DNA of 64,000 nucleotides, from assembly GCA_028532985.1 (NCBI GenBank), contig JANCIK010000005.1:998501-1062500 (forward strand). The letters run 5' to 3'. Below the pieces are notes generated by a model. The model made no database searches, was not told where the DNA came from, and saw only the letters and a program-made list of their open reading frames with translations. Position 1 is the stretch's first letter. Every line of letters begins with the position of its first letter. Positions 1,833 through 24,386 of this stretch are shown piece by piece. The stretch comes from Stropharia rugosoannulata. Taxonomy: Eukaryota > Basidiomycota > Agaricomycetes > Agaricales > Strophariaceae. The position numbers were made by a program, and so were the translations under genes.

Positions 1833-2914
1833 TCAGTACGCGTGCTTATCCCGCGACTCCTTTCGGCACGCGTCTGAGCAGAAATAATCGTCCTCGCTCT
1901 GCGGCATGGTCAGACATAGAATACAAGGTTGGGCGTATCCGCTAGTGACTGCCATCCTTTAATTTCCACATAGGATGAACATATCGAATTAGCACTCGCA
2001 AAGAACAAGGACACAGCGTAAAAATAGACTCACTCCGCATGCGCCGAGGAGCAGTAGTCGTTCAGCTTCCTCCCCCGCGCGTCGCGCTGTACAGGTTCCC
2101 CGCAGCCAGTGATAAGGCACTCAAGATTATCGGCAGATTCTGGATCGCCCGTCCTAGTATGGGCGAGAAGTTGAGCGTCCTGCTCGGGCGCGCAGGAGAC
2201 TTGGGGGACCGCACCGTTCGTCATTACTACATGACCGGCAGTTGCCTGCGACGCGGCATCGGCCCCGGCGTGTGCGGGCGCGCTCGGAAGGAAGGGGTTG
2301 TTGGCGCTCGCCGGGTGGTGTAGATCAGTACCGGCGGGGTCGGCGAATGGGTCTTGCGGCGAATGATATTGTGGGGGAGGAGCAGGCGCGCGTGCGGTCG
2401 CTGCGGCGAGGGCAGCGGCAGGCTGTAACATGGCTTGTATTTGAGGTATATGCTGTATCACGAGCTCTGTGGCATTGCGGGTCAAAGGACGAAAAAAAGC
2501 GGCTCTACCGATTATTTGAACTCACTCGCTATTTTAATTGGGTCGAATGATCCCTGGACAGTACTCCCAGTCCTGCCGCCCCCTTTCCCTTTTGGGTTGG
2601 CCAACAAAGCACAGGTCTTGCCACAATATTCATATCCTTGAAATTTCGGCCTCTTGTGACAGTGCTTTGACAAGGGAGTCAAGATTGAACACAGTATCTC
2701 AGTCGCATTTACGACTGCACTCTTACCTTGCACAAGGCTGCTGCATGTCCGGCACAGGTCTTTGAGCAATATGGATGGTTATCGAACTTGGGTCGCTGAT
2801 TGCAGTACTACGTCACGCTAGCGTTATCATCGGAATAATACAGAGAGGCTGACAGAGACAACTAACACTGCAGAGTTCGAGTGTTTCCGAGGAGTTAGAT
2901 GAAAGTGCGGCCAT
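1833..2914 (-). CDS. Zinc-array protein related to the PARP N-terminus, no catalytic domain
   Basis: The start at 2914 begins MAALSSNSSETLELCS. The next exons give a first module (YCNQRPKF...YCSKTCAG) and a second (HCHKRPKF...YCGKTCA). A long Ala/Pro-rich linker follows, and then CLITGCGEPVQRDARG...YCSSAHAE at about 2030-2120. The last exon has CILC...DYFCSDACRK and stops at 1833. These are the same Cys/His modules, in the same order, that precede the PARP domain in the gene at 22618-24386, but no PARP exons follow. The protein is probably zinc-binding, and its role is unknown. It is transcribed in the same direction as the NADAR gene 257 bp upstream. The paralogue at 19931-20921 has the same layout but carries a stop codon, whereas this copy reads through intact. 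Confidence 0.7.
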
Positions 2915-3170
2915 CTGTTTTAACGATAATTTGCAATGCCGAACGTTGAACGCTGAACGACGGACGCTGGAGGAGGAAGGCCACAGAGTTGTAGACGTCA
3001 AGATATATATCCACATGCCCTCCTCGAGGCAAGCATAGCAGAGTGTAGCCATTGTGTTATAAAAATATATAGCAACGCATGCAACAAGCGTTCCAGACGC
3101 TGATATTAAAATGGCCATGCACAGTGAACATTGAACTGAGGAACGAGGCGGGTATCGATGACCACCACCG

Positions 3171-4269
3171 CTAATCAGATCTCCCCCGCAATTTGTTTCT
3201 GAGCCTTTCCAGGCACCTTCCGAGTTCATTCCGCCCTCGCCCATCGGCGCCGATTCCCCAAAATGCATCTTTATCAGAATTCTGAACGCGAGATATTAGT
3301 TTGAATACAGATACACCAAAATAGATAATACACACACACCTCAATAAGTTCTGCGTCCCCTGTTCCGAGGAGTTGTGCCTTCAAATCTGGGTGTTGCGTG
3401 AACTTGTAGAATAATGCCTTGTCCATCTGTTTCAAGCTAATCAGATTGCCGCGCCATACTGTTTTCTCTTTGAAGTTACCTTTTCGATATTGACTTGTTT
3501 CCAGTCAGGTCTCACCTCTGGTGCAAATCGTCGGGCTTCAGAGAATGCCACACTTGGCCTCTCGGAACAGGTCCGGATATGTTCTGCTAGGTTGGGTCTA
3601 TGAGGCCGGAACTAGACGGCGATCAATATTGGTATCTAACGCCAGCTCGTTGCAGATTGCGTACCTTGAAAGATTGAAAAAGGTGTTCGCTAGTAGGATA
3701 GCGCTTGCCCTCATACATTACGGGGTCGGGGGAGAAATTAGTGAAACCGTAATAAGGCTCATCCTTGTGGTAGAATAAGATTGGCGGTTGGCGAATCGGC
3801 TCTGGGACCGGAGGTAAAGCAGGAAGGGGAGGAAAGGTCTTCCGTGGTAAATCTGGGAGAGGCGACGATGGAGCACTTGCAGGCTTTCCCCCTGAACGGC
3901 GTGGGCGGAATATGCTCATGCGTGACGAAGACCTAGAACTCTCGCGACTATGGGAACTTGGGGTATGCTCTTGCTCTAAATTGAAAGGGGTTGTTAGCAA
4001 AGTACAGTACTACATATGGCTGGCGGTGTCTTACTATGCGTAGGGCTGTTATTTTCGCTTTTATCCGCTAAAGAAAATAGAGTATTGAGGCTGGGGGCGT
4101 CCCAATGAGCTGGGTCGGTGTCCGAGGCGACATAGATGGTGCGCACGCGCTCTTCAACGCGGTAGACAGGAGCATGCTTCGTCTTTGGAGAGAGCATTTC
4201 GGAATCCGAAACCGACTTGAGTGTCACAATCGGCGACGTGAGTATGGAGATGGTCTTTGGGGAGCGCAT
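3171..4269 (-). CDS. NADAR (YbiA/DUF1768) family protein with a long disordered N-terminal extension
   Basis: Four or five exons join into one protein. The N-terminal part (about 150 residues) is rich in Ser, Arg and Pro (for example PRKTFPPLPALPPVPEP) and looks disordered. The NADAR domain follows: ILFYHKDEPYYGFTNFSPD and YPTSEHLFQSFKV (before 3660), then RPNLAEHIRTCSERPSVAFS, MDKALFYKFTQHPDLKAQLL with GTGDAELIE, and finally DAFWGIGADGRGRNELGRCL near the stop at 3171. The Glu of SEHLFQ, the FWG-G segment and the GRNELG motif are hallmark positions. The family acts on ADP-ribose-linked compounds such as riboflavin intermediates, and some members reverse guanine ADP-ribosylation. Which of these activities applies here is inference. 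A second copy lies at 21153-21822. Confidence 0.88.
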
Positions 4270-5780
4270 GAAGTTCTAAAACCTATGGTACGGCGGCCTC
4301 GTTCAAAAGAAGTGTATGTTTGTTCAAGTAGCTGCAAGACGTGCTGCTTCGGAGGGAGGTGCGGATTTCTGCCTGAGTGGAACCACTGAATGTGCTGCAG
4401 TTAACATGACTGGTGCCACGAGGTATAAGCATTGCTCCTGCGTTGCTTTCACCTGATTATCGCAAATTTAGAATCAAACGGAGTGGCGTTGGTACAGTGG
4501 TAATATCAAAAATAACACTTCCGTGCCCCAAACAAGCTGCGATCTTGCACTAGAAATCGTGAAAAAAATCGCGATGACCGATGACTTGCACTTTCTCCTG
4601 CAATGTCAAGTTGATGAATGAGCGCTGAGCGCTCAGCACGCTGCAAGAGCCGTGTGCGACGTGTCTGACGAGTGACCGTGAGAGTAAGAACGGCCCGACA
4701 CGCCCGCACACGGTTGCAGCCGTTTGGAAAATCTCCGAATCGTCCTTCGTTGACTCTTCGTATCTAAGCCTACGGCGTACGAGATCTTGAAATGCATACC
4801 ATCTACTTGGCATCTACAACTCTGTAACGGGATTGACCTCCGTATTTACTTGGTATATCCTCTGGAACTCGCCCATTCAGTCGATGCGACCTCCGCCTTT
4901 AGGGATCTACCCCATTTATGAGAAGTTGTTCCGGGCAGTGACATATCTGATGTAGGATGCTGAAACTGAGGCAGATCCTGTCAAAGCGGTAAGTATGCAA
5001 AAAGTATCATGTACGCCTAATACTTTCAGATTTAATGCGGAAATAGTGTGCACTACCGACAAGAAAGGGACTGGTTAGTGGCGAACGTACTAGGTTTCCG
5101 GACTTGGCGGTCAAGGCCTATCTTATACGAGCTACTTCGTCGATGAAGATATAGTGTTTACGATCATACGGACCGCTTCCAACGCGTCATCAGGGTCGAC
5201 TAAAATCTATGTTTACACCAGTGCCGTCATGGGCTGTACAACCGGTGTTCGCTTTACGATTAACCGTCTATTCAAAAATAGGCGCCTATATGCACAGAAT
5301 TTGCGGGACCGGAGTTGCTTTCTACTTCTGTAGCAGGTTTACAAATGAGGTGACAATAGCAAACACCTTAAGGAGGCGCTCACTGACAATACGCATTCTC
5401 TTAGCATATGTATCATCTATGTGCAGCCAATTTTTGTTTCGCCAGTACATCTAGTGGGTGATCAGATGCCAAGGTATGCACACATAGTAGTGACTTTAAG
5501 TTTGCGGTAATTTGTCCCCGCCCACGCTCTGCTTCCTATTGGGGTGCGCGACGCAATGATTCACAACGGTGTAATTGACCACTGACCACTTTTTTCAGGT
5601 CAATCAATATATATGATTGTTAATTGCTGTGCCACAGAAATCACAATGTTCTCCGAGAATACAATGCACACATTTCAGGTCACCTCCGGAAGTAGCGCTA
5701 TGAAACAGAAAAGAAGCCGTCTTTCCTATTGCCGCAATCTATGAATATAGCTCACAAAATGTAGATTGAGGAACGTCGCG
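4270..5780. other. Intergenic, no supported gene
   Basis: This stretch lies between the NADAR gene, which reads leftward, and the P450, which reads rightward. Short open frames exist on both strands (for example about 4550-4813 on the minus strand), but they show no family motif, no consistent exon joins and no repeat in the window. It probably contains both promoters. Confidence 0.4.
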
Positions 5781-5790
5781 CATATATAAG
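5781..5790 (+). promoter_or_regulatory. TATA-like box of the P450 gene
   Basis: The sequence CATATATAAG lies 43-52 bp upstream of the ATG at 5833. This is a reasonable distance for a TATA element with a short 5' leader. Confidence 0.5.
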
Positions 5791-5832
5791 CCTCTCAAGA
5801 CATGGGGATGTGCACAGACAATATCACTAGCA

Positions 5833-7985
5833 ATGGCGTCGTTTTTTAACCTTCTTCTGTCTCTCGCCGCAGCATCTCTTAGCATCACCGTATTTATATT
5901 CTTTCAGCAAAGAAAACAGCGAAAACTTCAATATCCTCCAGGCCCGCGGCCCCTGCCTCTCATAGGCAACATGCTTGATATGCCCTCCAAAGACGCTGCC
6001 CGCGTATTCATTGAATGGGGCAAAAAGCATAACAGTACGTTCACATTGACCAAACGCTTCTGCATACATGTATTTGACTACTATGGCTTCGTAGGTGATA
6101 TTCTATATGCAAGCGCGCTGGGTAACAACGTGTTTGTTATGAACAAGCTCAAAGACGCGGTTGAAATTTTCGAGAGGCGTAGCAGAGTATACTCTGATAG
6201 AGAAAAAATTCCCTTGGTCAAAATGTGCGTATTACGGTAGCTCGGTCGTATTTCTTTATCTTGTTATACTGACGACCGCAAATTAGGATGGGATGGGATC
6301 GCAACATTGGTTTGAATCAATACGGGGACACGTGGAGAATTCATCGCAAGATATGCCAGCAGAACTTCAACCAGAGAGCTGCAGTAGAATATCACCCGAT
6401 TATCAGATCTAAGGTACACGGACTATTACAAGCCTTGCTTAAAACTCCGGAGCATTTCGAAGAGCACACTAAGACGTGGGTCCAGTAGTTTGTGTCGTAC
6501 GCCACGTCATTCTGATGCCATTGCAGGTTTTCAACTTCAATCCCGTTGTCCGCCATGTACGGCTACGAGGCAGAGTCGCTTAATGATCCATGGGTCGAGC
6601 TCGCAGATAAGAGCCTTCTTATGGGTGCAGCGTTGCTAACTCCTGCTGGAAGCCTCATCAACATCTTCCCGTTCTTGAGACATATTCCTTCTTGGTTCCC
6701 TGGGGCTTCGTCCAGGAAAACAGCGGATGAGGTGAAACGACTAACCGAATGGCTTATTGAGAGCCCACTAGATTGGGTCAAGAAAAAGATGGCGCGTAAT
6801 TGATTGGAAAAATAATAATATTGCTAACATGCGACCATTCTATAGGCCGATGGTACTTATACTCCATCTCTTGTTTCGAAACACTTGGAAGGATCCGGCG
6901 GGAAAGCTGCAACCAAGGAGGAAGAGACCATCATAAGCGACATAGCTTTCTCCATTTATGTTGGTGGGTCCCCCTCGCCTTTTTCTCAGTACTAAACATG
7001 CTCACATGTAACTCTATAGGTGGCTCGGATACGGTATGTTCGTGCTTTTACCCACATAGCACATTTCATCTAAGATGAAACGCGATGACTAAGGCGAAAT
7101 CGCTCACCCGAACGTTTGTGTATCTAATGGCTACCCATCCGGAAGTTCAGCAGAAGGCACAGATGGAGATAGATTCCGTCACTGGCGGAGCACGCTTACC
7201 CGACTTCGAAGATCGACCCTTTATGCCGTATATGGAAGCTATGTACAGAGAGCTCATGCGTTGGATGCCCCCTCTTCACATTGGTCTTCCTCATTACTCG
7301 ACCGAAGATGACATGTACCAGGGATACTTCATACCAAAAGGCAGGTCAATTTCTATGCAGCTAATATGACAAGGCTCATGATCATACTTCTAGGTACCAC
7401 TATTATTGGAAATATCTGGTAAGATCTCAGAACTGTCTAAGTTACGCAGAGAATTGACGCTCTCTAGGGCGATGACGCATGACGAAGAGGTTTACCCCGA
7501 ACCTGACCTGTTCAAGCCTGAGCGCTTTTTCAACGAAGATGGTACACTTAACGACGACGACACCGTTCTTGCATACGGATTCGGTAGACGGTTAGTAACT
7601 CTTGCATATAGTGCGACACGATGTTGATTAGCAAGTAATGTTTGTATAGGATTTGTGTAGGAAAGCATGTCGCGTCGTCCATTGTACGTGAAATTCCTGT
7701 AAGCTATTACCCAGGCACTAACGAGTTAATTGCCAGGTCTGGATGATGATGACATCACTAATAGCGAGCTTCCACATTGGCAAGGCGAGGGACGAACTCG
7801 GACTGGAAATTGAAATCAAAGACGATTTCATCGACTACGGCATCTTGACGTGAGTATTTCTTATTCCCTATATGTGATTCTACTCACATCCATCTTTATA
7901 TAGTCATAAGAAACCATTTGAATGCTCTTTTAAGCCTCGGTCAGATGTGGCCACGGAGTTGATCACTGAGAAAACAAACGTCTGA
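5833..7985 (+). CDS. Cytochrome P450 monooxygenase
   Basis: The ATG at 5833 begins an N-terminal membrane anchor (FNLLLSLAAASLSITVFIFF) and the proline hinge YPPGPRPLPLIGN, so this is a microsomal class II P450. Later exons show the C-helix motif WRIHRK, the I-helix oxygen-binding segment VGGSDTT at 7010-7090 (split by an intron), the K-helix ExxR as ELMRW, the PERF motif as KPERF, and the haem loop GFGRR|ICVGKH across an intron at about 7595-7650. The Cys ligand is present. The stop is at 7985. The general layout resembles fungal P450s of the O-methylsterigmatocystin oxidoreductase type, but I cannot assign a CYP family or substrate. It sits inside the PARP/NADAR region, and no biosynthetic cluster is visible around it. 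About nine introns are needed, and exact borders are approximate. Confidence 0.9.
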
Positions 7986-8646: not shown

Positions 8647-9727
8647 ATGTCTTCAAGCTCGACGTATGACGAATTCAGCTATAGTCATCCTAAAAATCAC
8701 GGATACGGCAAATCAAAGAGACTGCGGCGCCTCCTGCCTAGCAGTCCCGAGTACTCAGCCGGTGAGTTTGAACCTTTGTGTATGGAAACTCCATACGAAC
8801 TTAGTATCCTCCTGAAGTGACAGCATTATTCGATAAGGGTTGGAGACACCCCAAGAAATTGAAACCATATGTCCATGGCGTATTCAAAGTCCTGTCTTCC
8901 GATAGCGATCTCGAACGATATCTACAATACAGGTACAGCCGTAGTGACATCATCAGTTGGGACAAAGTCTTCTAAAACTTATATTTACTCCAGAAAGAAG
9001 GTGGTATCGTCTTCAGCAGACCTCCGTAGCAAGCTGAAGAATCCAGCCAATGAGAAATACTTGTTTCATGGGACCAATCGTTATTGTCGGTTGGCAGAAG
9101 ACAGGAGCCGAGTTCGCCTTTGCGCCATTGAAGAATGCTATCTTTGTTCGATCCTTTTACGCTCGTTTGATGTTTCAAAATGCGGTGAGCTTTCAGCATA
9201 AATCTTCAGTCATTATATAGTTTAAAATAGTTATGAAAGGCTTGAAGAACAAGTTCCGTCGATTTGGATCTGGAATTTACACCAGCTCCTGTTCGTCAAG
9301 TGAGTTTTGCATAGTATTACTGGTCGGTGCTATTCTTACTGTGGTACAGAGGCTGACGACTATATTGCCAATGGGGACCCGATGACAAACCTCCGAGTAC
9401 TACTTGTGTGTCGAGTCATCGTAGGTAAGCCTTACAGGCGGCGGAGAAACGCTACGAGATTAACAGAGCCTCCAACCGGCTATCATTCCGTGCGTGCAAG
9501 CCATTTGTCATCTTAGGCAATTATAATAATCTTGTTTCATTCGTTTTTATTCACAGATTGTTGGAGAACCTGGCATTGACCTGAATTACGAGGAGACCGT
9601 AGTATACAACAATGACGCAATTCGACCGGCATTCCTGATTGTGTACGGGGATCAGCCACCCTTGGAGGCCAAGAATAACCTCCGATCCGTGATTGCGGGG
9701 TTATTCAAGACGCCTCTTGCTGTATAA
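8647..9727 (+). CDS. PARP catalytic-domain protein, short form without zinc array
   Basis: The first exon (MSSSSTYDEFSYSHPKNHGY) has no Cys/His modules. The next carries GWRHPKKLKPYVHGVFKV, equivalent to the SWRH...VRRVYKI segment of the paralogues. The catalytic domain shows the NAD-binding His in YLFHGTNR, the Tyr in RFGSGIYTSS, and the third triad residue Glu in NYEETVVYNNDAIRPAFLI, an H-Y-E set as in active poly(ADP-ribose) polymerases. The Cys pairs LCAIEECYLCS are family-specific. The stop is at 9727, only 85 bp from the stop of the opposing PARP gene at 9813, so the two are tail to tail. It is likely to be an NAD-dependent ADP-ribosyltransferase. Target and chain length are unknown. 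Confidence 0.85.
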
Positions 9728-9812
9728 TTTTCTTCGATACTATATGTACAGTACTGGATATCACCTAAATTATGTATATTGCTATTACGAAGATATATTC
9801 GCTGCAAACAAT

Positions 9813-11031
9813 TCAGGCGAGGTACATAATGATGTAGACAGGAAGAATAGCGTCAGAGACGGGAACGAAAAGCGGATTGTTATCCGAATTGCTCTGCTGG
9901 GCAATTAGGTACAAAACTATTAGTCATTAGGAAATGTATCACACCTTATCCTTTGATTGCGTTGCGACATCGCATGCAATCGTAACTCGATACGGCGAGG
10001 TTGTGCATGATGTCGCAAAACGATCAGCAAGCGCGGGGTTTTGATACGAGTATATCCCATCCCCAAACCTGTACAGCATATACACCAATGAAAAGCGCGC
10101 TCTAATGTAATCTTAGGCTTACTAACCTTCCGATGTTAAACTCTGCGTCGAAGGCCTGAGTCTTGAAACCCGATTTCGCAATGCAGCATATCCCGCAGGA
10201 CTTGAAGTGACAAAGGACCGGGCCTTTCGTACCGAGGTCGCAAATACACTGAGCGCTATGGAAGGCTCTTATGTCTTCGGTGATATGATTGGCCGTTCTA
10301 CAAAATGTTGGTAAGTGACATACGCTTGGTAAGTTTTATGTGTTGAATGCAGACCTGTAACTATCATGACGACTACGAATTCCGTATGGAAGAACAATCT
10401 CATAAATTTTATCCGCCGATGGACGAGGCTGTTCGGAATCCCATGCAGAAAGGAATTCAGAGCGAACTAAAGATTGAATCGGTTTTTGCGCCGACTTAAA
10501 TAAAATAAAAAAAGCCACAACGTACCAGCCTTATATTCCTTGCTGTTAGAAAGAAGCTCCCGCAAAGCCGGTCCTGGTGGAGGGGCTTGATTGCACGGAA
10601 TACAGATATTACCAATAGTGCGAGGTTGGATATGACAAATATCGCATCCTTTCACGTATCCAAGGCGTACTCCTTCTCTAAATAAACATCCTCAGTAATT
10701 CATCCAGAGGCACCAGATGGATTTACTTTGCATGAGCGTCGGAACAGAAGTTTCCAAACGCTGATTTGCCAGTCGCGCGGCAACCCTGTAGTAAACAGGG
10801 AGTAAGAGATGGTCCTTGGCCATTTCTTGCGCAAGTACGACCGCAATACGGATGTTTATGTCCATTTTCGACATATTTCGGCCGCTTGCCACAGACCTAC
10901 ATACAAGATTAATTTTCTGAAGGGGCGGGACGGCATAATGCAGAGCTTACTTCGCACAAGTCGTTCTGGGCGGGAGGTTTAGCGCGGCTGCCCGAGTTCC
11001 ATCCCATGATATTGCTGATCATTGAGCTCAT
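9813..11031 (-). CDS. PARP-like protein with zinc modules and a missing catalytic Glu
   Basis: The start is taken at 11031 (MSSMISNIMGWNSGSRAKPP). Zinc modules follow: LCE|VCGKRPKY...YCGRTCA at about 10975-10810, CLLQGCRATG...FCSDAHAK, and CDICHIQ...CIPCN at about 10640-10590. Then come KIYEIVLPYG, the His segment AFHSAQC, CDLGTKGPVLCHFKSCGICC, the Tyr segment RFGDGIYSYQNPALADRFA, and the C-terminus NNPLFVPVSDAILPVYIIMY with its stop at 9813. Aligned to the paralogues, the third triad position (Glu in DELVVY) is Pro here, and the His sits in FHS rather than WHG. Loss of the Glu suggests mono-ADP-ribosylation or an inactive enzyme, which is inference. The gene is convergent with the PARP at 8647-9727 and divergent from the one at 11393. 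Confidence 0.8.
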
Positions 11032-11392
11032 GAGATGTGAGGTGTCGAAAGATATACGCCGCACCGCTGATACTAGAGCATCGGTATAAGGATTCCACGA
11101 GTATTGCCTCGTGTACACAATGCAAACACGGCAGCCTCATGTCATGATCACAGAGCTAAGCTCTAAGCTAGGTCGTATGACTATTTTAATGCGTTGTCTT
11201 GCGTCTTCTGTCTCATCGAAATCACATACGATAAGCCTCATGGATATCGTCCCGCAGCCTCGTTCAATGTATCTTTCGTCGGCGGTTGTTCCAATGAAAT
11301 GAAGTGTACCAAAGCAAGTCCGCATCGCAGTTAAAATCTCGTAGACTTGATCTCCATTGCGATACCCACTTTACTTTCAGACAAAAGAAACG

Positions 11393-12929
11393 ATGAACAA
11401 CTTTTGTGATGTGAGCTGATGGTGCACTCTTCGTCGCTGATACTGATACCAGACTTCATTGTAGCAATGCCACAATAAGCCAAAATACTGGGACGGAACT
11501 AGATTCCATCCCTTTTGCGGAAAGACCTGCGCGAGCCAAGCCGCTCTGAATGGCTCCAATCAAGGGAGCGCTCAGCTATGCAATGTGAGTCCGGAAGTCG
11601 AAAATGGGTCGAAGAATTGTAATGCTGACGCAGTTGTCAGCTCTGTCATCTACGGCCAAAGTACTCTGACGGGACGAAGACTCACGATTATTGCAGCAAA
11701 GGCTGCGCTGGTAAGGCTGGCCTTGCCGGTTCAGTCACCGGGACTCCCAACGCTTCCGTAGCAACGATGTGCAATGTATGTATGCACCACTATTAACAAG
11801 GTGATTTCACCCTCTTGACAGTGGTACGTTCCCAGTATTGTCACCAGCGTGCAAAGTATACAGACGGGACGAAAGTTTTTGACTACTGCGGGAAGGGGTG
11901 CGCCCAGCAAGCAGAAACGGCCTGCCTGATGTGCTTGGCAGCCCCGAAGCAGAACCATTCCAACTTCTGCAGCCAGACGTGTACAGCACAAGCAGCAAGC
12001 ATGGCACCATCAGTCTTAGAAGTTCCAGAGGGGCATGTAACGTTCAAAGATGGTGAGGTCGCCGCACTAAGTCTTGAAGGTCGACTGCTGATGATTTGTG
12101 CTAGTGACGAGACAATTCGAAGAGTCTTGGAGACATGACGGCAGCCCTCCACCCGTGAGACGCATATACAAGATTATTGCTACGCATGCGGCTCTTGCTG
12201 GGTACAATATGTACAAGTAAGGCATTATGTTACGTGCTTTCAACGTAATATTCGAGTTTACCTTGTACTTATCCAGAGACCGAGTTGAAGCCAAAGGACA
12301 GTTTGCCAGCAAAGGGAAGGGGTTCACCGCAGGTAATGAGAGGCGAAGATGGCACGGGACGCGAAGAACGTGTAAACTTGGCGACAAGGGCCAGACCCAG
12401 CTCTGCACGGATACGAGGTGTTCTCTGTGTTCTATCATCCGGACTTCGTTCGACATATCGCTCTTCGCATCAAAAACGTCCTGGGGAAGGTGAGAGGCCG
12501 CATTCAAGCTCCTCAGCATAACTGAACGTCTGCCAATGAATAGGTTCGGCAAAGGGATATACACGTCGTCAACTTCTTCGAAGTCAGTTCCACTCTCTCC
12601 GTCTGATTTGGAGCCACATTGATTCCCTGTAGATCGAACGACTATTCTGAAAACGAGTGCGTCTCGAACCTGAAGGCTGTTCTTCTGAATAAAGTCGTCG
12701 TTGGCAAAGGATGCAAGATGTACATAGATCGCACCACGTTAACCCAGCCACCAGCAGGGTTCGACTCAGTGAGTTCGCGTGTTCAACGTCTATATAGTTG
12801 ACATTTGATTCTGAACGTTTCATAATATAGGTGCTAGCAGAGACGGGGATTATCCTAAACTATGATGAGCTCGTAGTTTATGACAACGATGCTATTAGAC
12901 CTTCCTTCCTTGTTATGTATGAACCATAG
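11393..12929 (+). CDS. PARP catalytic-domain protein with four-module zinc array
   Basis: The start ATG at 11393 gives MNNFCD, which splices to QCHNKPKYWDGTRFHPFCGK. Successive exons add LCHLRPKY...YCSKGCA, YCHQRAKY...YCGKGCA and CLMC...FCSQTC. A linker QFEESWRHDGSPPPVRRIYK leads into the catalytic domain: RRWHGTRR (His), CNLGDKG-like CKLGDKG, CSLCSIIRTSFDI, GRFGKGIYTSSTSSK (Tyr), LNKVVVGKG, and NYDELVVYDNDAIRPSFLV (Glu). The H-Y-E triad is complete. The gene ends with MYEP and a stop at 12929. It was probably made by array growth from a two-module ancestor like the copy at 22618. About 360 bp separates its start from that of the minus-strand PARP, so they share a divergent promoter region. 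Confidence 0.9.
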
Positions 12930-13203
12930 GCTTGAGACGTGTAATTAAGCCAGATGAAGAAATATGCTTGGTGACGCCATAAGTAAAGGAACCTTGCAAT
13001 AGCCAACCCCGTTGCCGAAGTGCAGATCGAAGTTTTCATGAAATCGTTGTGAAGTACTTAGTTTGTATGTAACTGTTTGGCAGATACAATGTGTCACTTA
13101 TGTAATGCAAGCTTCAATTACTTATCATCTCCGCTTTAGGGTTGATCTAATTAGTACTCCTACCATTAGAGGTCCTTTCAAGGTCCTTTACTCTCCTGTC
13201 GAA

Positions 13204-14310
13204 ATGCCCAGCGTTGGAAGCTTTTCGGCATGGATACAAGTTAACCAGAAACGCCTCCCAGAATACGCTGTAGAAGTGAAAGAAGACTGTAGTGAAGTGA
13301 CGTGCTGGGTGCCTTCAGAGGCGGGGAAGGTGAGTTCTTGCCGTATATCATGCCAAAGTCGAGCTAGTTGACGATTCCTCTTTATTTCTTCTTTTTCTTT
13401 CCCTGACTGGTTCACAGAACTTTGAGATATGCTATGCCGACTCCAAGCGCCAGTTCTCAACCAGTACACACCTCTGGGTGGACGGTGTACGTTCAACTGG
13501 GAAGATACTTCATGCACGGAGCGACCCGCGCGGGAAAGGGCGCAAGGATACAGTGACCCATCGAGGACTAGCTCTTTCCGAGGATGCACTTCGGCCTTAT
13601 ATGTTTGCAGACTGCGAGCTCGTGGGTGAGTCTATTCCAATGCTCACTCACTCCGTCTGTCCTGCACAGAAGTGGGATAGGGGACCAGTAACTCACTGAT
13701 TCCTCAGAGGATGAAGACTTCGTATCAACACTTTCTCCGGGTGTGGGTGAAATAGGATGTCTCATTAAGGAGGCCAAAGTCTATGGCTACCGCCGCCATG
13801 GGTCATACAACCCGAACGAAACCGACCTTCCTCCGTTGCGCATACAAGAGCGCGCGAAGAAGGGAGTTGTTCATGGAACAAAGTACGGCGCGACTTATTG
13901 ATTCTACCGAGTTTAACTAACAGGTACAAAATGTTAGGTTAGGTCACATTGTGAAGACAAACGGGAAGCCCTCGCGTGGAACAAAATCGATACGCAACAT
14001 TGTTAACTTCAAGTTTAGATACCGCCCTTTGGGTATGTATAGATAATCAAGCTTTTACTGTCTCGTTGCTCATTGTATTTTACATAAGCCGTACTGATAG
14101 CAGAAGGCATCGCTCCAAACCCCGAACAGCCGCCGAAAATATCCAACGAAGTAATCGACCTGACTATGGACGACAACGACAATGTAAAATCTGTATGTCG
14201 CGAAAAACAGGCCTTGCGATGATTCCTCTGATAAGATCTCACAGATTCCTGTTAAACACGAGCCGAAGAGAGAGCGATCTACAACTTATGATTTTATTGA
14301 TTTAACTTGA
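13204..14310 (+). CDS. DUF7918-like fungal protein
   Basis: The first exon begins MPSVGSFSAWIQVNQKRLPE and continues to VTCWVPSEAGK, a pattern I recognise from a widespread uncharacterised Agaricomycete domain (DUF7918): a beta-rich N-terminal domain that starts with an F-x-A-W-I motif and has a W-x-x-S-E-A-G-K turn. Later exons give NFEICYADSKRQFSTSTHLW, then GRKDTVTHRGLALSEDALRP, IGCLIKEAKVYGYRR and a low-complexity tail with two IDLT-type motifs (EVIDLTMDDNDN and YDFIDLT) before the stop at 14310. The repeated I-D-L-T core resembles a SUMO-interaction motif. Its biochemical function is unknown. It lies directly downstream of the PARP gene in the same direction. The exon joins all have GT..AG ends, and the last intron is about 14193-14246. 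Confidence 0.7.
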
Positions 14311-14639
14311 ATGTATGTGTCAGCCTTGTTAGTTTACCGTCCATGTAACCATTGTAAATGTTCGGAATGTACTTTACTATCTATTTTCACAGACCATAAT
14401 CTCAATTCATAATCTCAGTTCGGATGGAGGGCAGTTGGATATGCGTCGCGGAACTATTACTTGAAACCTTCAGCGCTTCAGCGCGTATGTATTATTGGCT
14501 TCGCGACAATGGACCACGTGTCTGAGGCTGAGGTAAGTCGAGTCCAACTTCTTCCACTGCCACCAGCATCGTACGTGATTCAACTATAGTAATGTTCATA
14601 AAGAAGCTGGCGCCCTTTCAGCTTGCCATTCTGTGGAAG

Positions 14640-16162: not shown

Positions 16163-19014
16163 ATGGATGAAAAGCCTTTACTCAGGTATGCACAGCGCTT
16201 TACTTACTCTCATACATTTAATAGTTGGTTACTGACATTTAAATTAATGATAGTCGGGCGTCGACGCCACCCAGTCAATACCCAGTAGTCAACATGCACA
16301 ATCAAGTCCCAACAACGCCACCATCAAATCTCATCAGCCAAGCACGTGCAAGGTAAGTTGAACTTACGACGCGCGAGTCCGCGTTCAGCTTCCAGCTTTA
16401 TTGCTTGTTAATTGCTCTCACTAAGTGTGAAGGAAACGCCTCGAACTGCGCGCTCCGACGCCAACAATATCGCCATTACCCGTGCCCGCCCCACTATAGC
16501 AAGTGAGATGAATGACGAGTTCATCACTTGTTCTTTCGATGAATTCATAGCACACTATATGCCGTTTGCGCCTTCGGAAAGTTATGTCATGCGATTCATA
16601 GATGCAAGCATGGCTCAGGGAAGCTCTGCCTTTACCCACCACGAGGATGATCCTCAAAAGATTGTATTCACGGACTACAAGCAACCTCCGAATTCGCAGG
16701 TTGATACTGAGAAAGTCTTTTACGCAAAGCTCGAACGCATCGCCCGTGAGGTTAAAGACTACCCAGACGCGCCACCAGGACAAGAAAAAAATGGTTTTTA
16801 CTACTACAACTGCCCCGATAACAAAATCTTAGGCGACATTATGGGGCAAAATAATCGCATCGACGCCTGCTTCCGGTCAGGCTGGGGAAAACTACACGTC
16901 CATCAAATTGCTGTTGCTATTGAGCAGAAAACCAAAACGAATCAGACAGTTCAGGTGCGCTACGCGTATCTTGAAAACCCTTGCTACAGACTTACACGCC
17001 CTTCCAGAATAATGGGCAGCTGGTTTCAATGAACGTTCAGTCAATGAACGACGATATCCGTCGTATGTTTATTTTTGGCGTAAGTAGCAGTTAACGTTCT
17101 GCAGTGCTTTGATTGCTTACCTTGTCTGGTCGATTCGACAGATAACCATTGAGGGAGATAAAGTTTGTTTGTTCTATCATTCAAGATCCCACTCTGCCAT
17201 CTCCGAACCTTTCTTTTTTGTTAAGGTACTTAAATATTACAACGTAGTTGGCCATCAATATTAAATCTACACGCAGGAACCCTGGCGACTTGTTCAGGTC
17301 TTCATGGCATTCATGTTTGCGACAGAGGCTGAATTGGGATACGACTCCATGGTGAAACATAATTCAGGTGGTGTATACACCTACGAGATTCCGTCTGAGC
17401 ATGGAAGTCGGTTTTTCCGTACGGGCGAGGCCTTGGCATTTTTCCGCTCGAATAACATTACTGGCCGCACGTCTCGCGTTTGGTCTGTAACCGAGGTCGA
17501 CGCCACTGGTGACCCTGTTAGCGGCAAATCAAAGTTTGTTCTGAAAGACGTATGGTTGGAGGAAGATGCGAAAACCGAAAAAGAGATTCAGCAAGACATA
17601 TTTGACGACATCGAGAAGTTCTTCAAATCTGACAATCAAGAAATCCACGAAGATCTTCAGAACCTTCGCCAGACTCATGCCGAGCTCGTTAAGAGTGGTC
17701 GCTACATGGAATATTTCTTGACAATTGTGACAGATTATGTTGGCCAATTGTCGAAGCCTGTAGCCCCCAATTCGACGCGCGCAGAGACCACCCTGATTCA
17801 ACAAACCAACCGTGCTCCGCCTGCTGACAGCAGTCGTACTACTACAAAGGCCCTTCGTGTTACCGCAGGGACCTCTCGACCCATCAGTACTCCTAATCCT
17901 GAAAGGCCGCATCGTGAATTTCTTCCGAGGAAGCAATATCGTGTCGTTTTCGAAGAGGAGTGTACCGCTGTTCGAGATCTCAGGACGCTAGGGGAGATTG
18001 TTGACGCAATTACATCTTCCCTGACTGGTGAGTGATGTATTTTATCGGACCGCTGACCATTTTGTCTTATCTTTAATTATATCCAGCGCTTGAATTACTG
18101 CTAGGGGCTGGATGGGTTCACAGGGATATCAGCTGTGGCAATCTCTTAGTTGAATATTGTGAAGATGGATTACAAATCAAGTTGTCGGACCTCGAGTACG
18201 CGAAAAGGTTCCCGCCCGCCGCAGGGACAGTAGCCTCCACTGATCCTAAAACAGTGAGTACCAGTACTTGGTTTACTGAAATTTACTTATGATCTCGTAC
18301 AAGGGGACGCCCTACTACATGGCTACAGAGATTCTTCAACGAGCGACTATTTACAAACCTGATGACAATGATTTTTCTACTTCTCCAGAAACTACTGAAT
18401 CAGAGCTGGAAAAAGAAGCGGAAATGATTTTAAGTGGGAAGACACCAGACACTACGCCCACTTTACTTGATCCCATTTTGCACAACTTTCAGCATGATCT
18501 CGAAAGCCTCTGGTGGATGCTTCTTCGTGCTATTATAGACTTTGTCCAAAACACGGAAGCAAACTATTGGGCCCGTCAAGTATTCGATAATTCCATTGGA
18601 CAAACCGATGGTATCAGATTCGACGTGTTTCATAAAGGTGTAATCAAACTCCGCACCGTTCTGCCTTTGCATCTCGCAAACACATTCACGCCCGTCATGG
18701 AATATCTACGGAAGCTTCTGCGCAAGACCTATGGAATTCGCCAGAAAAAAGGCGAGGTCTATTGCCAATTTGCTTATGTTGCAGTGTATCGACTCTTTGG
18801 TGTAATGCTCAGGTCTCTGCAAAAAAGCAGAGCGGATTGGGCATCTACTCCTTTGGGTAGAGACGGTCTCATTGAGGTAGAACCTCTTCGCACGAGGCCG
18901 AAACGGCTATTAGATGAAGAAGATTCGGATTGTAAACTTAACTTTGAAATTGCTACAGGATCTGGCAATATTTCAAACTCGGGCAAGGCAAAGCGCTTGA
19001 AATTCGGTGTTTAG
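16163..19014 (+). CDS. FunK1-family protein kinase
   Basis: Short first exons (MDEKPLLS, then a Pro/Ser/Gln-rich stretch) lead into a long N-terminal domain typical of this mushroom-expanded kinase family, with EMNDEFITCSFDEFIAHYMP and SGWGKLHVHQIA. The middle exon (17304-18027) covers the N-lobe and a charged helical region. The catalytic loop is WVHRDISCGNLLVEY (about 18113-18160). The metal-binding motif reads SDLEYAKR, so Asp is kept but DFG is replaced by DLE. The activation segment continues GTPYYMATEIL, and the C-lobe includes DLESLWWMLLRAI. The stop is at 19014, followed by a decayed copy of its own 3' end. FunK1 kinases are known from mushroom kinomes, and substrates are unknown. At least seven introns are required, all with good splice signals. 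Confidence 0.88.
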
Positions 19015-19154
19015 AATATAAGTAGGTATAGTGGTCCGTTTCGAACCCATACATATGTGTATCACGCTTGAGCTTGATCACGCTTTTATATATTCATTTA
19101 TGTTTCCTTATTAGACATCATTACATATGTATACGTTTAATTCTTAGATGTTGA

Positions 19155-19500
19155 CTTTCGCGCGAGAGACCGAAACGTCCGGATAGGCTTGTGATAGGCT
19201 TTGTCCAAGATACGCAAGCAAACTATTATTGGCCAGTGTCAGATCTTCAAGCGCTAAACTATCTACATCACAGCAGGTCGGATTGGGCATCTACCCCCTT
19301 GGGTTGTGAGGGCCTTGTTAAATTGTCGAGCCCCCCCGCAAGAAGCTGAAACGTCCGTCAGATCATGCGGTTGACCTGGATTATGAGCCTGGAGCTGGGA
19401 CGGCTGGGAGATCCAACTTGTCAAACTCGGGCAGACGCTCGGGCAAAGCGAAGCGGTCTAGGCTCGGCACAAGCCGCCGTTGTCAGGCCGTTGTTTATTT
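19155..19500 (+). pseudogene. Second decayed FunK1 3' fragment
   Basis: The pieces GFVQDTQANYYW (about 19198), SRSDWASTPLGCEGLVK (about 19272) and SNLSNSGRRSGKAKRSRLG (about 19410-19465) match the end of the adjacent intact kinase: DFVQNTEANYW, SRADWASTPLGRDGLIE and SNSGKAKRLKFG. Frame changes and deletions lie between the pieces. It looks like a tandem partial duplication of the kinase tail that has decayed. Confidence 0.7.
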
Positions 19501-19841
19501 CGGGTGAGAGATCCAAACGTCTGGCCAGGGATTTATGTGTTCATAGATTCCGACGTTCAAATGGTGTTCAGATCATGATTGAAGCACTTTCAAGTTAGCC
19601 TTCTCAAACATTGGGAGTGTTCTGAGGCCCCAAAACAGTATTCACCCAGAACGGGTACAGCGGCACCGGCTCACCCACGTGTAGTAATGGCCCGGCATCT
19701 CCTACTTAACACGAGTCAATCCCGTCCGAAACATGCATGAGTCTGGAAGACCGGTTCTTGATTGATTCTTGACGATTTTACTCGTTTGCACTGGATTTGG
19801 TCAGCGTAACAAAGAAAGCCTCATGTTTCCCATGAGGAACG

Positions 19842-19848
19842 TATAAAA
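19842..19848 (+). promoter_or_regulatory. TATA box upstream of zinc-array gene
   Basis: TATAAAA lies 83 bp upstream of the ATG at 19931. Confidence 0.5.
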
Positions 19849-19930
19849 ACTGCAGTAGAAGTCGTGGATATGGCCTCTCCGAACTTTAATTGCCCTCTTT
19901 CAAGATCTTTCAGCGCAACCCTTTCATCAA

Positions 19931-20921
19931 ATGGCTGCAAATTTTACTAAGCTATCTAACCAGGCCAATCTCTGTGATGTGATTCCGCAGTCCTCTCTGT
20001 TACATCTGACTTTCTAATAAGATTACAGTATTGTCATCTGAGGCCTAAGTTCGCCAACCATCGATACTGCTCTAAGACGTGCGCTGGCCAAGCGGCACCT
20101 CTGACGGCGGCGCAGGCACCGCTTTGCAAGGTACAAACAGTGCTTCTGAATAACACGAGTACTCCAACTGACCGACCTTTCTTATATAGCAATGTCATCA
20201 AAAGCCGAAACATCAGATGTTTGACTACTGCGGCAAGACTTGAGCCGCCCTAGCTAAAACAAGTGGGGGTGCTATGGGCTTTGCAGCGGTGCAACAGCCC
20301 AGTACCATACCTTATCCTGTTCGCCCGCGTAAGTTATAACGAATTAAAAAAATTACGCACGTACAATTAAACTTCAATAAAAACTGCACCTCAAGCTCAA
20401 GCCCCAGGAAAGTTTGCCGCCGCTGCCCCGGCGGTGCCTCAAGGGCTCCCCACCGGATACAACGGGGCCACTCAATTGAATCCAATCCCACCCGGCGGAC
20501 AGAAACTCTACCAGGCGCAGCCCATAGTCTCTCCCAATCAAGGAAGCATCGCGCCTCCACATGCTTTCAACAGCGGTCAGATGTCACAGGCTTTGTGTCT
20601 TATACCTGGTTGCGGGAAGCCAGTATATCGTGACGCCCAAGGCGCGTTGAGCACATATTGCTCAATCCGTCATCGCGAGTAAGTCCATTGTATCAGATAT
20701 ATCAACGGATTCAATTTAATCAGTGCTACGACAGCGAGGCCGCGCAGGCCGCCACTGCACCTGTTCAAGTGGCTACGGCACCCCCAAGCGTGCAAGAGCC
20801 ACTGTGTATTATGTGTTCATCAGCTCCGCAAAGGGATGTCGATTACTTCTGCTCAACCGATTGTCGAGACAAGTCTTTGAGCAAGCTACCCGTAGACGCC
20901 TATCCGGAATACCCAGAGTGA
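19931..20921 (+). pseudogene. Zinc-array protein paralogue with a nonsense codon
   Basis: The ATG at 19931 begins MAANFTKLSNQANLCD, spliced to YCHLRPKF...YCSKTCAGQ and then LCK|QCHQKPKH...YCGKT. The next codon, at 20241-20243, is TGA where every paralogue has a Cys codon (YCGKTCA), so the frame stops after about 65 residues. Beyond the stop the frame resumes with a Pro/Ala-rich linker, CLIPGCGKPVYRDAQG...YCSIRH, and CIMCSSAPQRDVDYFCSTDC before a natural stop at 20921. The layout equals that of the intact gene at 1833-2914, and there is no PARP domain. It converges on the NADAR gene at 21153. Alternatives are a sequencing error or a short functional peptide, since no splice site removes the stop. 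Confidence 0.75.
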
Positions 20922-21152
20922 TAGGCTTCATTAATTTTATCGGTACATTCTGTTCTGGTTTGACCTTTCCGCTGCGCAGATTTGTTCGGTCAGATATGTA
21001 CATATAACTTTTCTTAATGATACATTGAGATCTTGCTGTAATTGGACGTGTTAGGGTTATCGTACTGCTCATAGTATGCTCATGATCAGTGGCCACAGAT
21101 ATGAACGGTATATGTTTGATCACACTTGCCGTCGATAATGCTCCAATCCTGA

Positions 21153-21822
21153 CTAGTTCTCCCCAGAGTTGCTCCGCAATTTATTCCGAAGCCTCTCCAA
21201 GCATTTACCGAGTTCGTTTCTTCCTTGTCCATCTGAGCCAACACCCCAGAAGGAGTCCTTATCGGAATCCTATTACACCTACTTAGAACAATCTCTGTTG
21301 CGGAAGAGAAAATAGGCTGACCTCAACTAATTCAGCGTCGCCAGTGGCAAGAAGCTCTGCCTTTAGTGCCAAATGTTGGCTGAACTTGAGTAACAGTGTT
21401 TCATCCATCTGAGCGGTTGACTATCAAGTTTCTGCTGGAAGGATAACTAAGAAAGCAAACCTTTTGGATGTTGATCTTCATCCAGTCGCTCCTAATCTCG
21501 GGATGAAAGCGACGTGCCTCCGAAAATGCGACGCTTGGTCTGTCCGAGCATGTCCGAATGTGTTCAGCTAAATCAGGTCGAACTCCATGAAACTAGGAGG
21601 AAATATTTTCTGATACATTTTTGTTTAGCGCTCATTGATATTGGTTGACTTTACCTTGAAAGATTGGAAAAGATGTTCACTAGTAGGATATCTTTTCCCG
21701 TTATACACCACTGGATGATTCGAAAAGTTTGTGAACCCGTAGTGTGGGTCATCGCTGTGATAAAAGAGAATCTTCGTCCGAGCTGTAAGGGGCTTGTCTG
21801 ATGATTGTAGATGTAAAGACAT
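21153..21822 (-). CDS. NADAR (YbiA/DUF1768) family protein, compact form
   Basis: The start is taken at 21822 (MSLHLQSSDKPLTARTKILF); an upstream in-frame ATG at 21933 is possible. Exons give FYHSDDPHYGFTNFSNHPVV, YPTSEHLFQSFKV, FHGVRPDLAEHIRTCSDRPS, AFSEARRFHPEIRSDWMKIN, MDETLLLKFSQHLALKAELL with ATGDAELVE, and SFWGVGSDGQGRNELGKCL before the stop at 21153. All hallmark NADAR positions are present. It closely resembles the copy at 3171-4269 but lacks that copy's long Ser/Pro-rich N-terminus. It sits between a zinc-array gene and a PARP gene. A role in removing ADP-ribose marks, or in metabolising ADP-ribose-like compounds, is inferred from the family and the neighbours. Confidence 0.88.
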
Positions 21823-22617
21823 GTCAGTTGTGGTTTCTGTCGCGCAGGTCAGTAAGTGGATGACAGAAAACGCTGGACTCAGACATACCACTTTCTGGTC
21901 GAGTAGCAAGTATGTGTTAACCTTAATTTTCACTTTAGCTAAAGAAAAATATCTGACTATTTAGATAGCCAGGTAGTATCTCGTCGTTCTGATGGAAGGT
22001 ATTCTTCCGATAACAGATCGTTGCTCGTCGATTATCTGATGATCAGCCACTAACAGGGAAAGTTCCGAGCTAAACTGGTATGCGACTGGATTTATACAGA
22101 TTCTTGCATTTGACTTAATCGCCAATAAAAACGTGTATGGAAAGCATAAAATAGGTAAGTAGTCTGTATACTACGCAAAGTTGCTCGCCCGCGTCGAGCA
22201 AATTACAAGTACGTGGGAACTTGTTTCTATTTACGGTAAAAGCTCCGACATTGCCCGAGCATCGTCGGGGAGCAAAATTCTGTAGTCATTCTTTACATAT
22301 TTTGACCATGCACACAATGAACAGAGAAAGTCCCAAGTCATTTCATTTTTGACAAAAAGGCTACTATCAGCCTCTTTAATCCATTCTTCAGCCGCAGCAC
22401 TTGGTTCGACCTGGTATTGGTAGTAACACCGCATGACAGAATGCCTCGTGGAAAGCAGAAAGCGGCCTCGTTTGTATCACTGGAAGACAGCCTTTTACTG
22501 CAGAGATACATGACTTTGCATGAAGGCCGGTGCATGGTATAAAACGTCAACGTCCATCTTGTCCTTCCCCATAGAATTTCAGTGTGCACTGCGTGCCACA
22601 GGTCGATAGAGACCGCC
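21823..22617. other. Divergent promoter region between NADAR and PARP genes
   Basis: These roughly 800 bp separate the starts of the minus-strand NADAR and the plus-strand PARP. A TATAAAA at 22538-22544 lies 74 bp upstream of the PARP ATG. Short frames here have no motif. Confidence 0.5.
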
Positions 22618-24386
22618 ATGTCTTCCCATATCCCGTTGGCCTTATCACTTTTGGGCACTTTTGCTAGTCACTACTACCCCTTGGCTTTAGCTCAGAATAC
22701 TGCGACTCCTGCGCCGCCACCCCCTCCTCCCCCACCTAGTCTTGCGCCTGCGCCTGCCGTGAATGCGACTCCCCCTGCCACTAACGCTAATAACAACAGC
22801 AGCAGCACGTCAAGTAATACACTCTGCGAGGTTTGCGACTTTTCTATAGCGTCATGCTCTATTTACTGAACCTTTTCCCCACCGAAGACATGCCATTTGA
22901 GACCAAAGTTTATCGAGGGTGGGAAAATTCACCCGTACTGTAGCAAAACTTGTGCAAGAAAAGCTAGTAACACCCCATCGCCCCCAAACTCGGGCACTTC
23001 TGGAGATTGCGATGTCAGTACATTTTATTTTTGATTGCTTTTATCTTTGCTAACATCCTTCGTCTCAGTTCTGTCATAAACGACCGAAATACACCGACGG
23101 AACAAAGGTACATGATTACTGCAGCAAGACGTGTGCAAGGCAGGCCGGTGGCCCCAAGCGCAAATTAACTTCTGGACCCCAGCCCGGTAAGTAGCGATAC
23201 GTTTTATGACTACACACGCTCATGTTCCGCTCGTAAAAAGCTCCAGCTACATGTCAAGCCACCGGTTGTACGGAACTACCGATGCCTGGTGGCGTCTACT
23301 GCTCTTCGGTGCACAAGCAGTAAATCCATTATCCTGTCCTTCTATCTGCGCGTAACTAAATTTTAACGCAGCCTCGCCGACTCGGCCTGCCTAATGTGTT
23401 TGAAGGACCCTCAGATGTCTAATTCACATTTCTGCAGTCAGGCGTGCAACGACGCGGCAGAGCGGAAGGTACTTCTCGAGGTGCCTGCTGGGCATGCTAC
23501 GTTCAAGAGTGGTATGACTTGTCAAATGATCTCTTGCCGTTCATTCCCCTCATGAAATTCATTCGAATAGTCGCAGATCAATTCGAAGCATCGTGGAGAC
23601 ACGCGGGGACAACCTGCCCTCCTGTGCGACGCGTGTACAAGATCGTGTGCCCAGCTGCCTCACTTGCCAAGTACAACGCATACAGGTAAAGTATAATATT
23701 CAAATTTGGGTCTGTATCCAGACTCTGATCGCATTTGATGGCAGGGCATCTGTTGAGGCCAAAGGCCAGTTTCTCAAAAGCGGACGCTCTGAAGGCAATG
23801 AGAATCGCCGGTGGCATGGGACGAAGAGGGAATGCAATCTCGGAGATCAAGGTCATACTCAGCTCTGTACATCGACGACCTGCTCTCTATGTTGCATTAT
23901 TCGCACGTCGTATGACATAACACTTTGGGGAAAGAAGACAGGCTGGGGACGGTAAGCTACCAATGTATTAACATGGAGTAAATTTGATTTTCGACTAACA
24001 TATGCGTCTTAGGTTCGGCAAGGGAATATATACTTCTTCAACATCTTCTAAGTGAGTATTGTCTATTGTGTTAACTACACAAACTGACGTCATGGAAGGT
24101 CAAACGATTACTCCCAAAATGAATGCATTTCTGATCTTAAAGCGATCCTACTGAACAAAGTCGTGGTTGGGAAGGGCCGCAAACTTCTACATGATAACAC
24201 ATCCCTGACCGCTCCACCTTCTGGATATGATTCGGTAAGCTTGTTCTTCATTTCCGTTGCTTATCTTGTACTCATTGAAATCAGGTTCTGGCGGAGAAGG
24301 GTGGAAGCCTAAACTATGATGAACTTGTTGTATACAATAACGACGCCATACGCCCTTCATTTTTGGTGATGTACTCGGAGCCATAG
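22618..24386 (+). CDS. PARP catalytic-domain protein with zinc array and polyproline leader
   Basis: The ATG at 22618 starts a hydrophobic stretch (IPLALSLLGTFASHYYPLAL), then a run of eight prolines and an Asn/Ser-rich linker. Zinc modules follow in order: LCE|TCHLRPKF...YCSKTCA, CD|FCHKRPKY...YCSKTCA, CQATGCTELPMPGGVYCSS and CLMC...FCSQAC. The linker QFEASWRHAGTTCPPVRRVY precedes the catalytic domain, which has RRWHGTKR (His), CNLGDQGHTQLC, CSLCCIIRTSYDI, GRFGKGIYTSSTSSK (Tyr), LNKVVVGKG and NYDELVVYNNDAIRPSFLV (Glu). The H-Y-E triad is complete, and the stop is at 24386. It is probably an active ADP-ribosyltransferase. The hydrophobic N-terminus could be a targeting signal, though most relatives lack one. 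It lies head to head with NADAR. Confidence 0.9.

What the first reader, a model, noticed from the sequence alone, without database searches (positions are those of the whole stretch)
1833..24386. ADP-ribosylation island: four PARP-domain genes with two NADAR genes and zinc-array partners
Four PARP-catalytic genes, two NADAR genes and two zinc-array-only genes of the same family lie within 22.6 kb. PARPs attach ADP-ribose. NADAR proteins act on ADP-ribose-linked compounds, and bacterial members reverse guanine ADP-ribosylation by DarT-type enzymes. Each NADAR sits beside a zinc-array gene, and the second also lies head to head with a PARP that has the full H-Y-E triad. This layout suggests a eukaryotic writer/eraser system, perhaps for nucleic-acid or antiviral/anti-transposon control, comparable in logic to bacterial DarT/NADAR pairs. 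The gene identities are seen directly; the joint function is inference.
Basis: partly seen in the sequence, partly recalled or inferred. Interest (0 to 1): 0.93.

Follow-up and report, generated by a model that had tools for sequence, protein, structure and literature searches.

The report
Mushroom PARP–NADAR writer/eraser locus
In this mushroom genome, genes for enzymes that are predicted to attach ADP-ribose (PARPs) sit beside genes for enzymes likely to remove it (NADARs), and the same two gene families lie on one contig in 43 of 47 other mushroom-type species compared, which points to a likely, still untested, reversible marking system for nucleic acid or other targets.

Summary
In 22.6 kb of a 48 Mb mushroom-type genome I find four PARP-domain genes (three intact with H-Y-E, one degenerate on the minus strand), two intact NADAR genes and two zinc-array genes (one open, one with an in-frame stop). 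Beyond the window, PARP and NADAR relatives share a contig in 43 of 47 Agaricomycete species named in both of my (capped) protein lists (about 2.5 expected from contig lengths, species not independent), in some only 2-4 gene numbers apart. The zinc-array gene shares that contig in the one species where this could be checked. PARP catalytic residues are kept in 55 of 56 chosen relatives, seven NADAR ADP-ribose-site residues in 43-44 of 44. The macrodomain, PARG and ARH matches of the genome lie elsewhere. Best reading: a conserved mushroom writer/eraser locus, likely for guanine-linked ADP-ribose on nucleic acid; the chemistry is untested. It works like bacterial DarT1-NADAR and YarT-YbiA but is not a member of them. 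Main rival: conserved gene order without joint function. The listings of my literature searches showed no report of a fungal PARP-NADAR pair.

The parts
1833..2914 (-). Zinc-array gene A: two CxxC...YCxKxC units, disordered linker, then CxxxGC...YC and CxxC...FC units; no PARP domain
   Evidence: open model for exons 1-4; last exon read by eye; relatives in Hebeloma (47%), Amanita inopinata, Suillus
3171..4269 (-). NADAR1, full-length form with the N-terminal segment seen in the ~300-aa relatives
   Evidence: Pfam NADAR 1.7e-36 (shorter model); four splice choices for the first intron stay open
8647..9727 (+). PARP1: short PARP without zinc array, H-Y-E kept; groups 100/100 with the N halves of Gymnopilus dilepis and Psilocybe cyanescens double gene models
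   Evidence: several first-intron choices stay open
9816..11035 (-). PARP4: divergent, degenerate zinc-array PARP (Glu of the triad not kept, C-terminal part shortened); borders approximate
   Evidence: read by eye
11393..12929 (+). PARP2: zinc array plus PARP domain, 362 aa, H-Y-E kept
19931..20921 (+). Zinc-array gene F: as gene A, with an in-frame TGA in unit 2 (likely pseudogene as read); later exons not fully modelled
21153..21822 (-). NADAR2: NADAR domain alone, 167 aa, 71% identical to NADAR1 over the aligned part
22618..24386 (+). PARP3: zinc array plus PARP domain, 424 aa, H-Y-E kept; relatives at about 50-68% in many Agaricomycetes

Best explanation
This is a gene locus conserved across mushroom fungi that pairs zinc-array PARPs, predicted to attach ADP-ribose to guanine bases of nucleic acid, with NADAR enzymes that would likely remove it again. 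Steps: (1) PARP2/PARP3 bind their target, likely RNA or single-stranded DNA, through the Cys-rich array (inferred); (2) the H-Y-E catalytic domain transfers ADP-ribose from NAD+ (predicted from intact residues); (3) NADAR1/NADAR2 hydrolyse the guanine-ADP-ribose bond (inferred from activity of other NADARs, including an oomycete one, and from conserved residues); (4) zinc-array-only proteins compete for or guide to the same target (speculative). The linkage itself is shown; the chemistry and the purpose (regulation, or a toxic response with built-in relief) are not.
For: Same contig in 43 of 47 species named for both families, 23 of 23 where all listed PARP contigs are under 600 kb; locus tags 2 apart in Stygiomarasmius, 3 in Amanita phalloides, protein numbers 3 apart in Infundibulicybe and 4 in Jaapia. 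Zinc-array gene 3 numbers from the PARP in Amanita inopinata. In Mycena latifolia the 78% NADAR shares the PARP contig while a 61% paralogue lies on another. H, Y, E in 56, 56, 55 of 56 PARPs, chosen by hand from the 120 listed; residues matching E43, K50, R79, W89, D130, W133 of the solved oomycete NADAR in 44 of 44 and E125 in 43 of 44 (one gap), 44 chosen from 120 listed, the double-NADAR paralogues left out (numbering from PMC11543638 section 12). Duplicates look constrained: pN 0.19 against pS 0.90 (NADAR1/2), 0.26 against 0.85 (PARP2/3), synonymous sites saturated. Of four eraser families searched only NADAR is here; the Macro, PARG and ARH matches lie on C5:1502 kb (440 kb away), C3 and C7. 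Published: P. nicotianae NADAR and YbiA-type NADARs hydrolyse guanine-ADP-ribose (PMC11543638 sections 11, 12 and first part of 13; PMC11125620 section 6), and among the hydrolases compared in PMC11833690 (passages) NADARs were the only family that did so on RNA.
Against: I know of no activity measured for these proteins. YbiA also acts on riboflavin intermediates (PMC11543638). Agaricomycetes keep degraded macrosynteny within the class (PMC3219968, passages), so contig sharing alone could be inherited order; in Psilocybe cyanescens and Amanita inopinata the genes are 20 and 18 numbers apart. 4 of 47 species do not share a contig (one of these probably compares two assemblies, by its locus tags). 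PARPs on C10 and C12 have no NADAR match near. Other ligand contacts of the oomycete NADAR (Y84, D86, R93) fall on different residues in NADAR2 (E88, R90, N97; by eye), and the DarT1-partner lysine is Phe or Leu here in 44 of 44. NADARs of other contexts fail to replace cognate antitoxins (PMC11125620). The PARP catalytic domain models poorly, so no substrate loop could be judged; human PARP10 modifies uracil, not reversed by E. coli C7 NADAR (PMC13036486, passages).
Confidence: 0.45

Rival explanations
1. The PARP and NADAR genes are neighbours by inherited gene order only; NADAR does metabolic repair of riboflavin intermediates (YbiA-like) and the PARP marks proteins.
For: Agaricomycetes retain degraded macrosynteny (PMC3219968, passages). 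NADAR here carries the YbiA-type Glu, and the Galerina relative is closest to YbiA by fold, E 1.5e-10. Gene spacing varies from 2 to 20 numbers.
Against: Linkage persists on seven contigs of 65-182 kb and at 2-4 gene numbers in Stygiomarasmius, Amanita phalloides, Infundibulicybe and Jaapia; both partners have extra local copies in this genome that look constrained.
Confidence: 0.3
2. Writer and eraser act together, but on proteins, on other bases or on soluble ADP-ribose products rather than on guanine in nucleic acid.
For: Typical H-Y-E PARPs act on proteins (recalled); NADARs have been proposed to act on soluble ADP-ribose derivatives (PMC9503650, passages). Nearest solved PARP chains by sequence are PARP4 and PARP3, protein-modifying enzymes as recalled.
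Against: The NADARs tested in PMC11833690 (passages) hydrolyse guanine-ADP-ribose on RNA and not phosphate-end RNA ADP-ribose; ARTD enzymes such as DarT1 do reach guanine (PMC11543638).
Confidence: 0.22
3. Chance crowding of multicopy gene families in a duplication-prone stretch of this one genome.
For: A FunK1-type kinase gene lies between the genes, with what look like fragments beside it, and PARPs also cluster on C10 without NADAR.
Against: The pair is linked in 43 of 47 other species, where crowding in this genome is irrelevant.
Confidence: 0.03

Closest known systems
DarT1-NADAR (DarTG1) toxin-antitoxin system of bacteria
   Same: ARTD-type transferase gene next to a NADAR gene; NADAR removes guanine-linked ADP-ribose
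   Different: Eukaryotic, intron-rich; PARP-type writer with zinc array instead of DarT1; NADAR has YbiA-type Glu not the DarT1-partner Asp and lacks its Lys; toxicity untested
YarT-YbiA pair of myxobacteria
   Same: YbiA-type NADAR beside an ART with H-Y-E motif; eraser rescues the writer's toxicity there (PMC11125620)
   Different: YarT is a minimal Rhs-toxin-like ART, not a PARP with zinc array; operon in bacteria
Canonical PARP1/2 with PARG and macrodomain erasers
   Same: PARP catalytic family and H-Y-E
   Different: No WGR or regulatory domain listed for the three PARPs scanned; the genome's WGR and PARP matches at C12:1185-1187 kb, PARG and macrodomain matches lie elsewhere
Nematode SNA-3 (three NADAR domains, trans-splicing)
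   Same: Eukaryotic NADAR tied to RNA biology
   Different: The word PARP does not occur in the main text of that paper (PMC9303266)

Membership tests
NADAR superfamily (PF08719) | Pfam profile over cut-off (35.1 bits) | tested here: met
   126.4 and 123 bits
NADAR superfamily (PF08719) | ADP-ribose-site residues E43, K50, R79, W89, E125, D130, W133 (P. nicotianae numbering) | tested here: met
   All present in NADAR1 and NADAR2 by alignment; 43-44 of 44 chosen relatives. Y84, D86 and R93 are not matched in NADAR2 (by eye)
NADAR superfamily (PF08719) | Guanine-ADP-ribose hydrolysis | not testable with these tools
   needs protein assay
DarT1-associated (BC4488) NADAR | Asp in place of the YbiA-type Glu, and the antitoxin Lys (K115 of E. 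coli C7) | tested here: not met
   Glu in 43 of 44 (one gap); Phe 43 and Leu 1 of 44 at the Lys site
PARP (ARTD) family, PF00644 | Pfam profile over cut-off (26.7 bits) | tested here: met
   47.7-49.2 bits for PARP1-3; PARP4 not run through Pfam
PARP (ARTD) family, PF00644 | H-Y-E triad | tested here: met
   PARP1-3 by eye; 56, 56, 55 of 56 chosen relatives; not met in PARP4 (by eye)
DarT family | DarT-like sequence | tested here: not met
   Pfam scan of PARP1-3 at E <= 1 lists PARP and, weakly, RPAP2_Rtr1, DUF7576 and Plant_vir_prot, no DarT family
Toxin-antitoxin system | Writer is toxic and the linked eraser rescues | not testable with these tools
   needs expression test

The most novel reading that the evidence does not exclude
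A eukaryotic counterpart of DarT1-NADAR: mushroom fungi carry a conserved three-part locus (zinc-array PARP, NADAR, PARP-less zinc-array protein) that reversibly ADP-ribosylates guanine in RNA or DNA, either as an endogenous epitranscriptomic switch or as an inducible self-limiting defence against viruses and transposons.
Probability: 0.35. Interest if true: 0.92.

Novelty: new variant of a known kind. Interest (0 to 1): 0.72.

Why it matters
Why eukaryotes keep NADARs is an open question in print: PMC11125620 (passages) says that the physiological roles of NADARs found across eukaryotes remain unclear. A PARP that has stayed linked to a NADAR across mushroom lineages names a candidate cognate writer, so the question becomes a direct test with two proteins. 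If guanine is the target it would show reversible nucleic-acid ADP-ribosylation as a native eukaryotic system outside toxin attack.

Tried and rejected
A first regex for the triad Glu matched only 86 of 120 hits; it was too narrow, and the aligned column gave 55 of 56. A first PARP1 model was out of frame and was replaced. I first counted three PARPs and read the plus strand at 10.1-10.5 kb as a kinase fragment; a profile scan showed a fourth PARP on the minus strand. Structure of the PARP relative: catalytic part under 50 pLDDT in long stretches, Foldseek best E 0.27 to PARP14/15, so not used for mechanism; weak hints of a zf-HIT-like zinc unit (E 0.32, E 1.1) are not claimed. No relative of the PARP profile was confirmed in genome contigs or viral contigs, nor of the NADAR profile in viral contigs (exact-pattern scans). 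Literature: eight searches aimed at this showed no report of a fungal PARP-NADAR pair in the rows listed; I saw the top rows only (for example 20 of 42, 15 of 427, 10 of 3,338). The 2012 paper that named NADAR (recalled) is not held, so prior mention there is not excluded.

Limits of the linkage count: rows were typed by hand from the listings (101 of 120 listed rows; 19 dropped for lack of species name or contig; 84 of 120 listed; 36 dropped for the same reason); those lists are the best 120 of 342 and of 1731 hits. Same contig was judged by equal contig length within a species. Genome size was set to 40 Mb for all species. Species share ancestry, so the tail probability printed in that call is not used.
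Full report
What is there. The window is C5:998501-1062500 of a 48.0 Mb, 20-contig genome; the intron-rich genes and the closest relatives (Gymnopilus, Psilocybe, Galerina at 58-65%) suggest one of the Agaricales. Hand-spliced models give NADAR1 (3171-4269, minus), NADAR2 (21153-21822, minus), PARP1 (8647-9727), PARP2 (11393-12929) and PARP3 (22618-24386, all plus), each open from Met to stop; the introns of the NADAR, PARP3 and PARP2 models are 47-62 bp. Zinc-array gene A is at 1833-2914 (minus; its last splice was not modelled) and gene F at 19931-20921 (plus), F with an in-frame TGA. A profile built from relatives found a fourth, divergent PARP on the minus strand at about 9816-11035 with weak support for its later pieces; by eye its His and Tyr are kept and its Glu is not.

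Family checks. Pfam: NADAR 126.4 and 123 bits, PARP 47.7-49.2 bits, all over cut-off; gene A (without its last exon) has no Pfam family. Against solved structures NADAR2 matches E. coli YbiA (3.2e-27) and the P. nicotianae NADAR 8bau (1.3e-7); a model of the Galerina relative matches the same two by fold (1.5e-10, 4.9e-6). Seven residues that hold ADP-ribose in 8bau (PMC11543638, section 12 read) map onto NADAR2 E49, K56, R83, W93, E129, D134, W137 and are kept in 44 of 44 chosen relatives, E129 in 43 of 44 with one gap. Three other contacts (Y84, D86, R93) are not matched in NADAR2 (by eye), and the antitoxin lysine of DarT1-linked NADARs is not kept. In 56 PARP relatives, chosen by hand from the 120 listed, the triad is H 56, Y 56, E 55, and four further cysteines inside the catalytic domain are invariant.

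Linkage beyond the window. I compared contig lengths and locus tags of the best PARP3 relatives and NADAR relatives. Of 47 species named in both, 43 have a PARP and a NADAR on the same contig; about 2.5 would be expected if they fell at random in a 40 Mb genome. All 23 species whose listed PARP contigs are all under 600 kb share; seven of the shared contigs are under 200 kb. The four exceptions are Ephemerocybe angulata (probably two different assemblies, by the locus tags), Lyophyllum shimeji, Mycena capillaripes and M. epipterygia. Locus numbers are 2 apart in Stygiomarasmius scandens, 3 in Amanita phalloides, 18 in A. inopinata and 20 in Psilocybe cyanescens; protein numbers are 3 apart in Infundibulicybe and 4 in Jaapia, which suggests but does not prove adjacency. 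Only three relatives of zinc-array gene A were found; the one in a species with both other genes listed (A. inopinata) lies on the same contig, 3 numbers from the PARP. Two PARP relatives, of Gymnopilus dilepis and P. cyanescens, are gene models that join a short PARP to a PARP3-type one; the short halves group with PARP1 at 100/100. So the short PARP, the zinc-array PARP, NADAR and likely the zinc-array gene look like one old locus, enlarged here by extra copies. When those arose is not resolved: the forks that place NADAR1, NADAR2, PARP2 and PARP3 are weak. The copies look constrained (pN well under a saturated pS).

What speaks against over-reading. Fungal species are not independent, and Agaricomycetes keep degraded macrosynteny within the class (PMC3219968, passages), so sharing a megabase contig is weak evidence; the small contigs and the 2-4-number cases carry the argument. 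The same genome has further zinc-array-type PARPs on C10 (four places in 12 kb) and C12:173 kb, and no NADAR match was found near them. WGR and PARP matches on C12:1185-1187 kb, a macrodomain match on C5:1502 kb, a PARG match on C3 and an ARH match on C7 show that ordinary PARP and eraser genes exist elsewhere in the genome; these six-frame counts are lower bounds.

Mechanism. The best-supported reading is a writer/eraser pair. NADARs remove ADP-ribose from guanine in DNA (PMC11543638 sections 11, 12 and first part of 13 read; PMC11125620 section 6 read) and RNA (PMC11833690, passages), and YbiA-type NADARs also act on riboflavin intermediates. Transferases of the ARTD class can reach guanine (DarT1). 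In myxobacteria a YbiA-type NADAR is the antitoxin of a linked H-Y-E transferase, YarT (PMC11125620); the same paper finds that NADARs are specific for their cognate partner. By analogy the mushroom PARP is predicted to mark guanine in nucleic acid and the NADAR to clear it; target, product and purpose are inferred.

Standing. PMC11125620 (passages) states that the roles of NADARs found across eukaryotes remain unclear, and the rows listed by eight full-text searches show no fungal PARP-NADAR pair, with the caveat that I saw top rows only and that the founding 2012 paper (recalled) is not held. I rate it a new variant of a known kind: ADP-ribosyltransferase plus NADAR, here with a eukaryotic PARP as the partner.

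Noticed in passing
window 16412-19014; fragments about 14.6-15.1 kb and 19.2-19.5 kb: FunK1-type fungal protein kinase gene (Pkinase_fungal 2.4e-13) with what look by eye like decayed copies on either side.
   Followed up: partly
window 13180-14305: Possible gene between PARP2 and the kinase; no Pfam match for three of its reading frames; recalled as like DUF7918 proteins, untested.
   Followed up: partly
window 51896-53543: Urease gene pieces (Amidohydro_1 7.9e-16; Urease_beta 1.6e-7), a possible anchor for synteny controls.
   Followed up: no
G000:C10:1662443-1674333: A second cluster of zinc-array-type PARPs, four places within 12 kb on both strands, without a NADAR match nearby.
   Followed up: partly
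PARP3 N terminus, window 22618-22690, and relatives: A hydrophobic start (like SHIPLALSLLGT) that recurs in 7 of the 16 PARP3 relatives printed, perhaps a membrane or targeting segment; unexplained.
   Followed up: no
P0121, P0124 (Mycena alexandri, Cyathus striatus): Two NADAR domains in one protein, by eye: a paralogous double form in Mycena and Cyathus.
   Followed up: no
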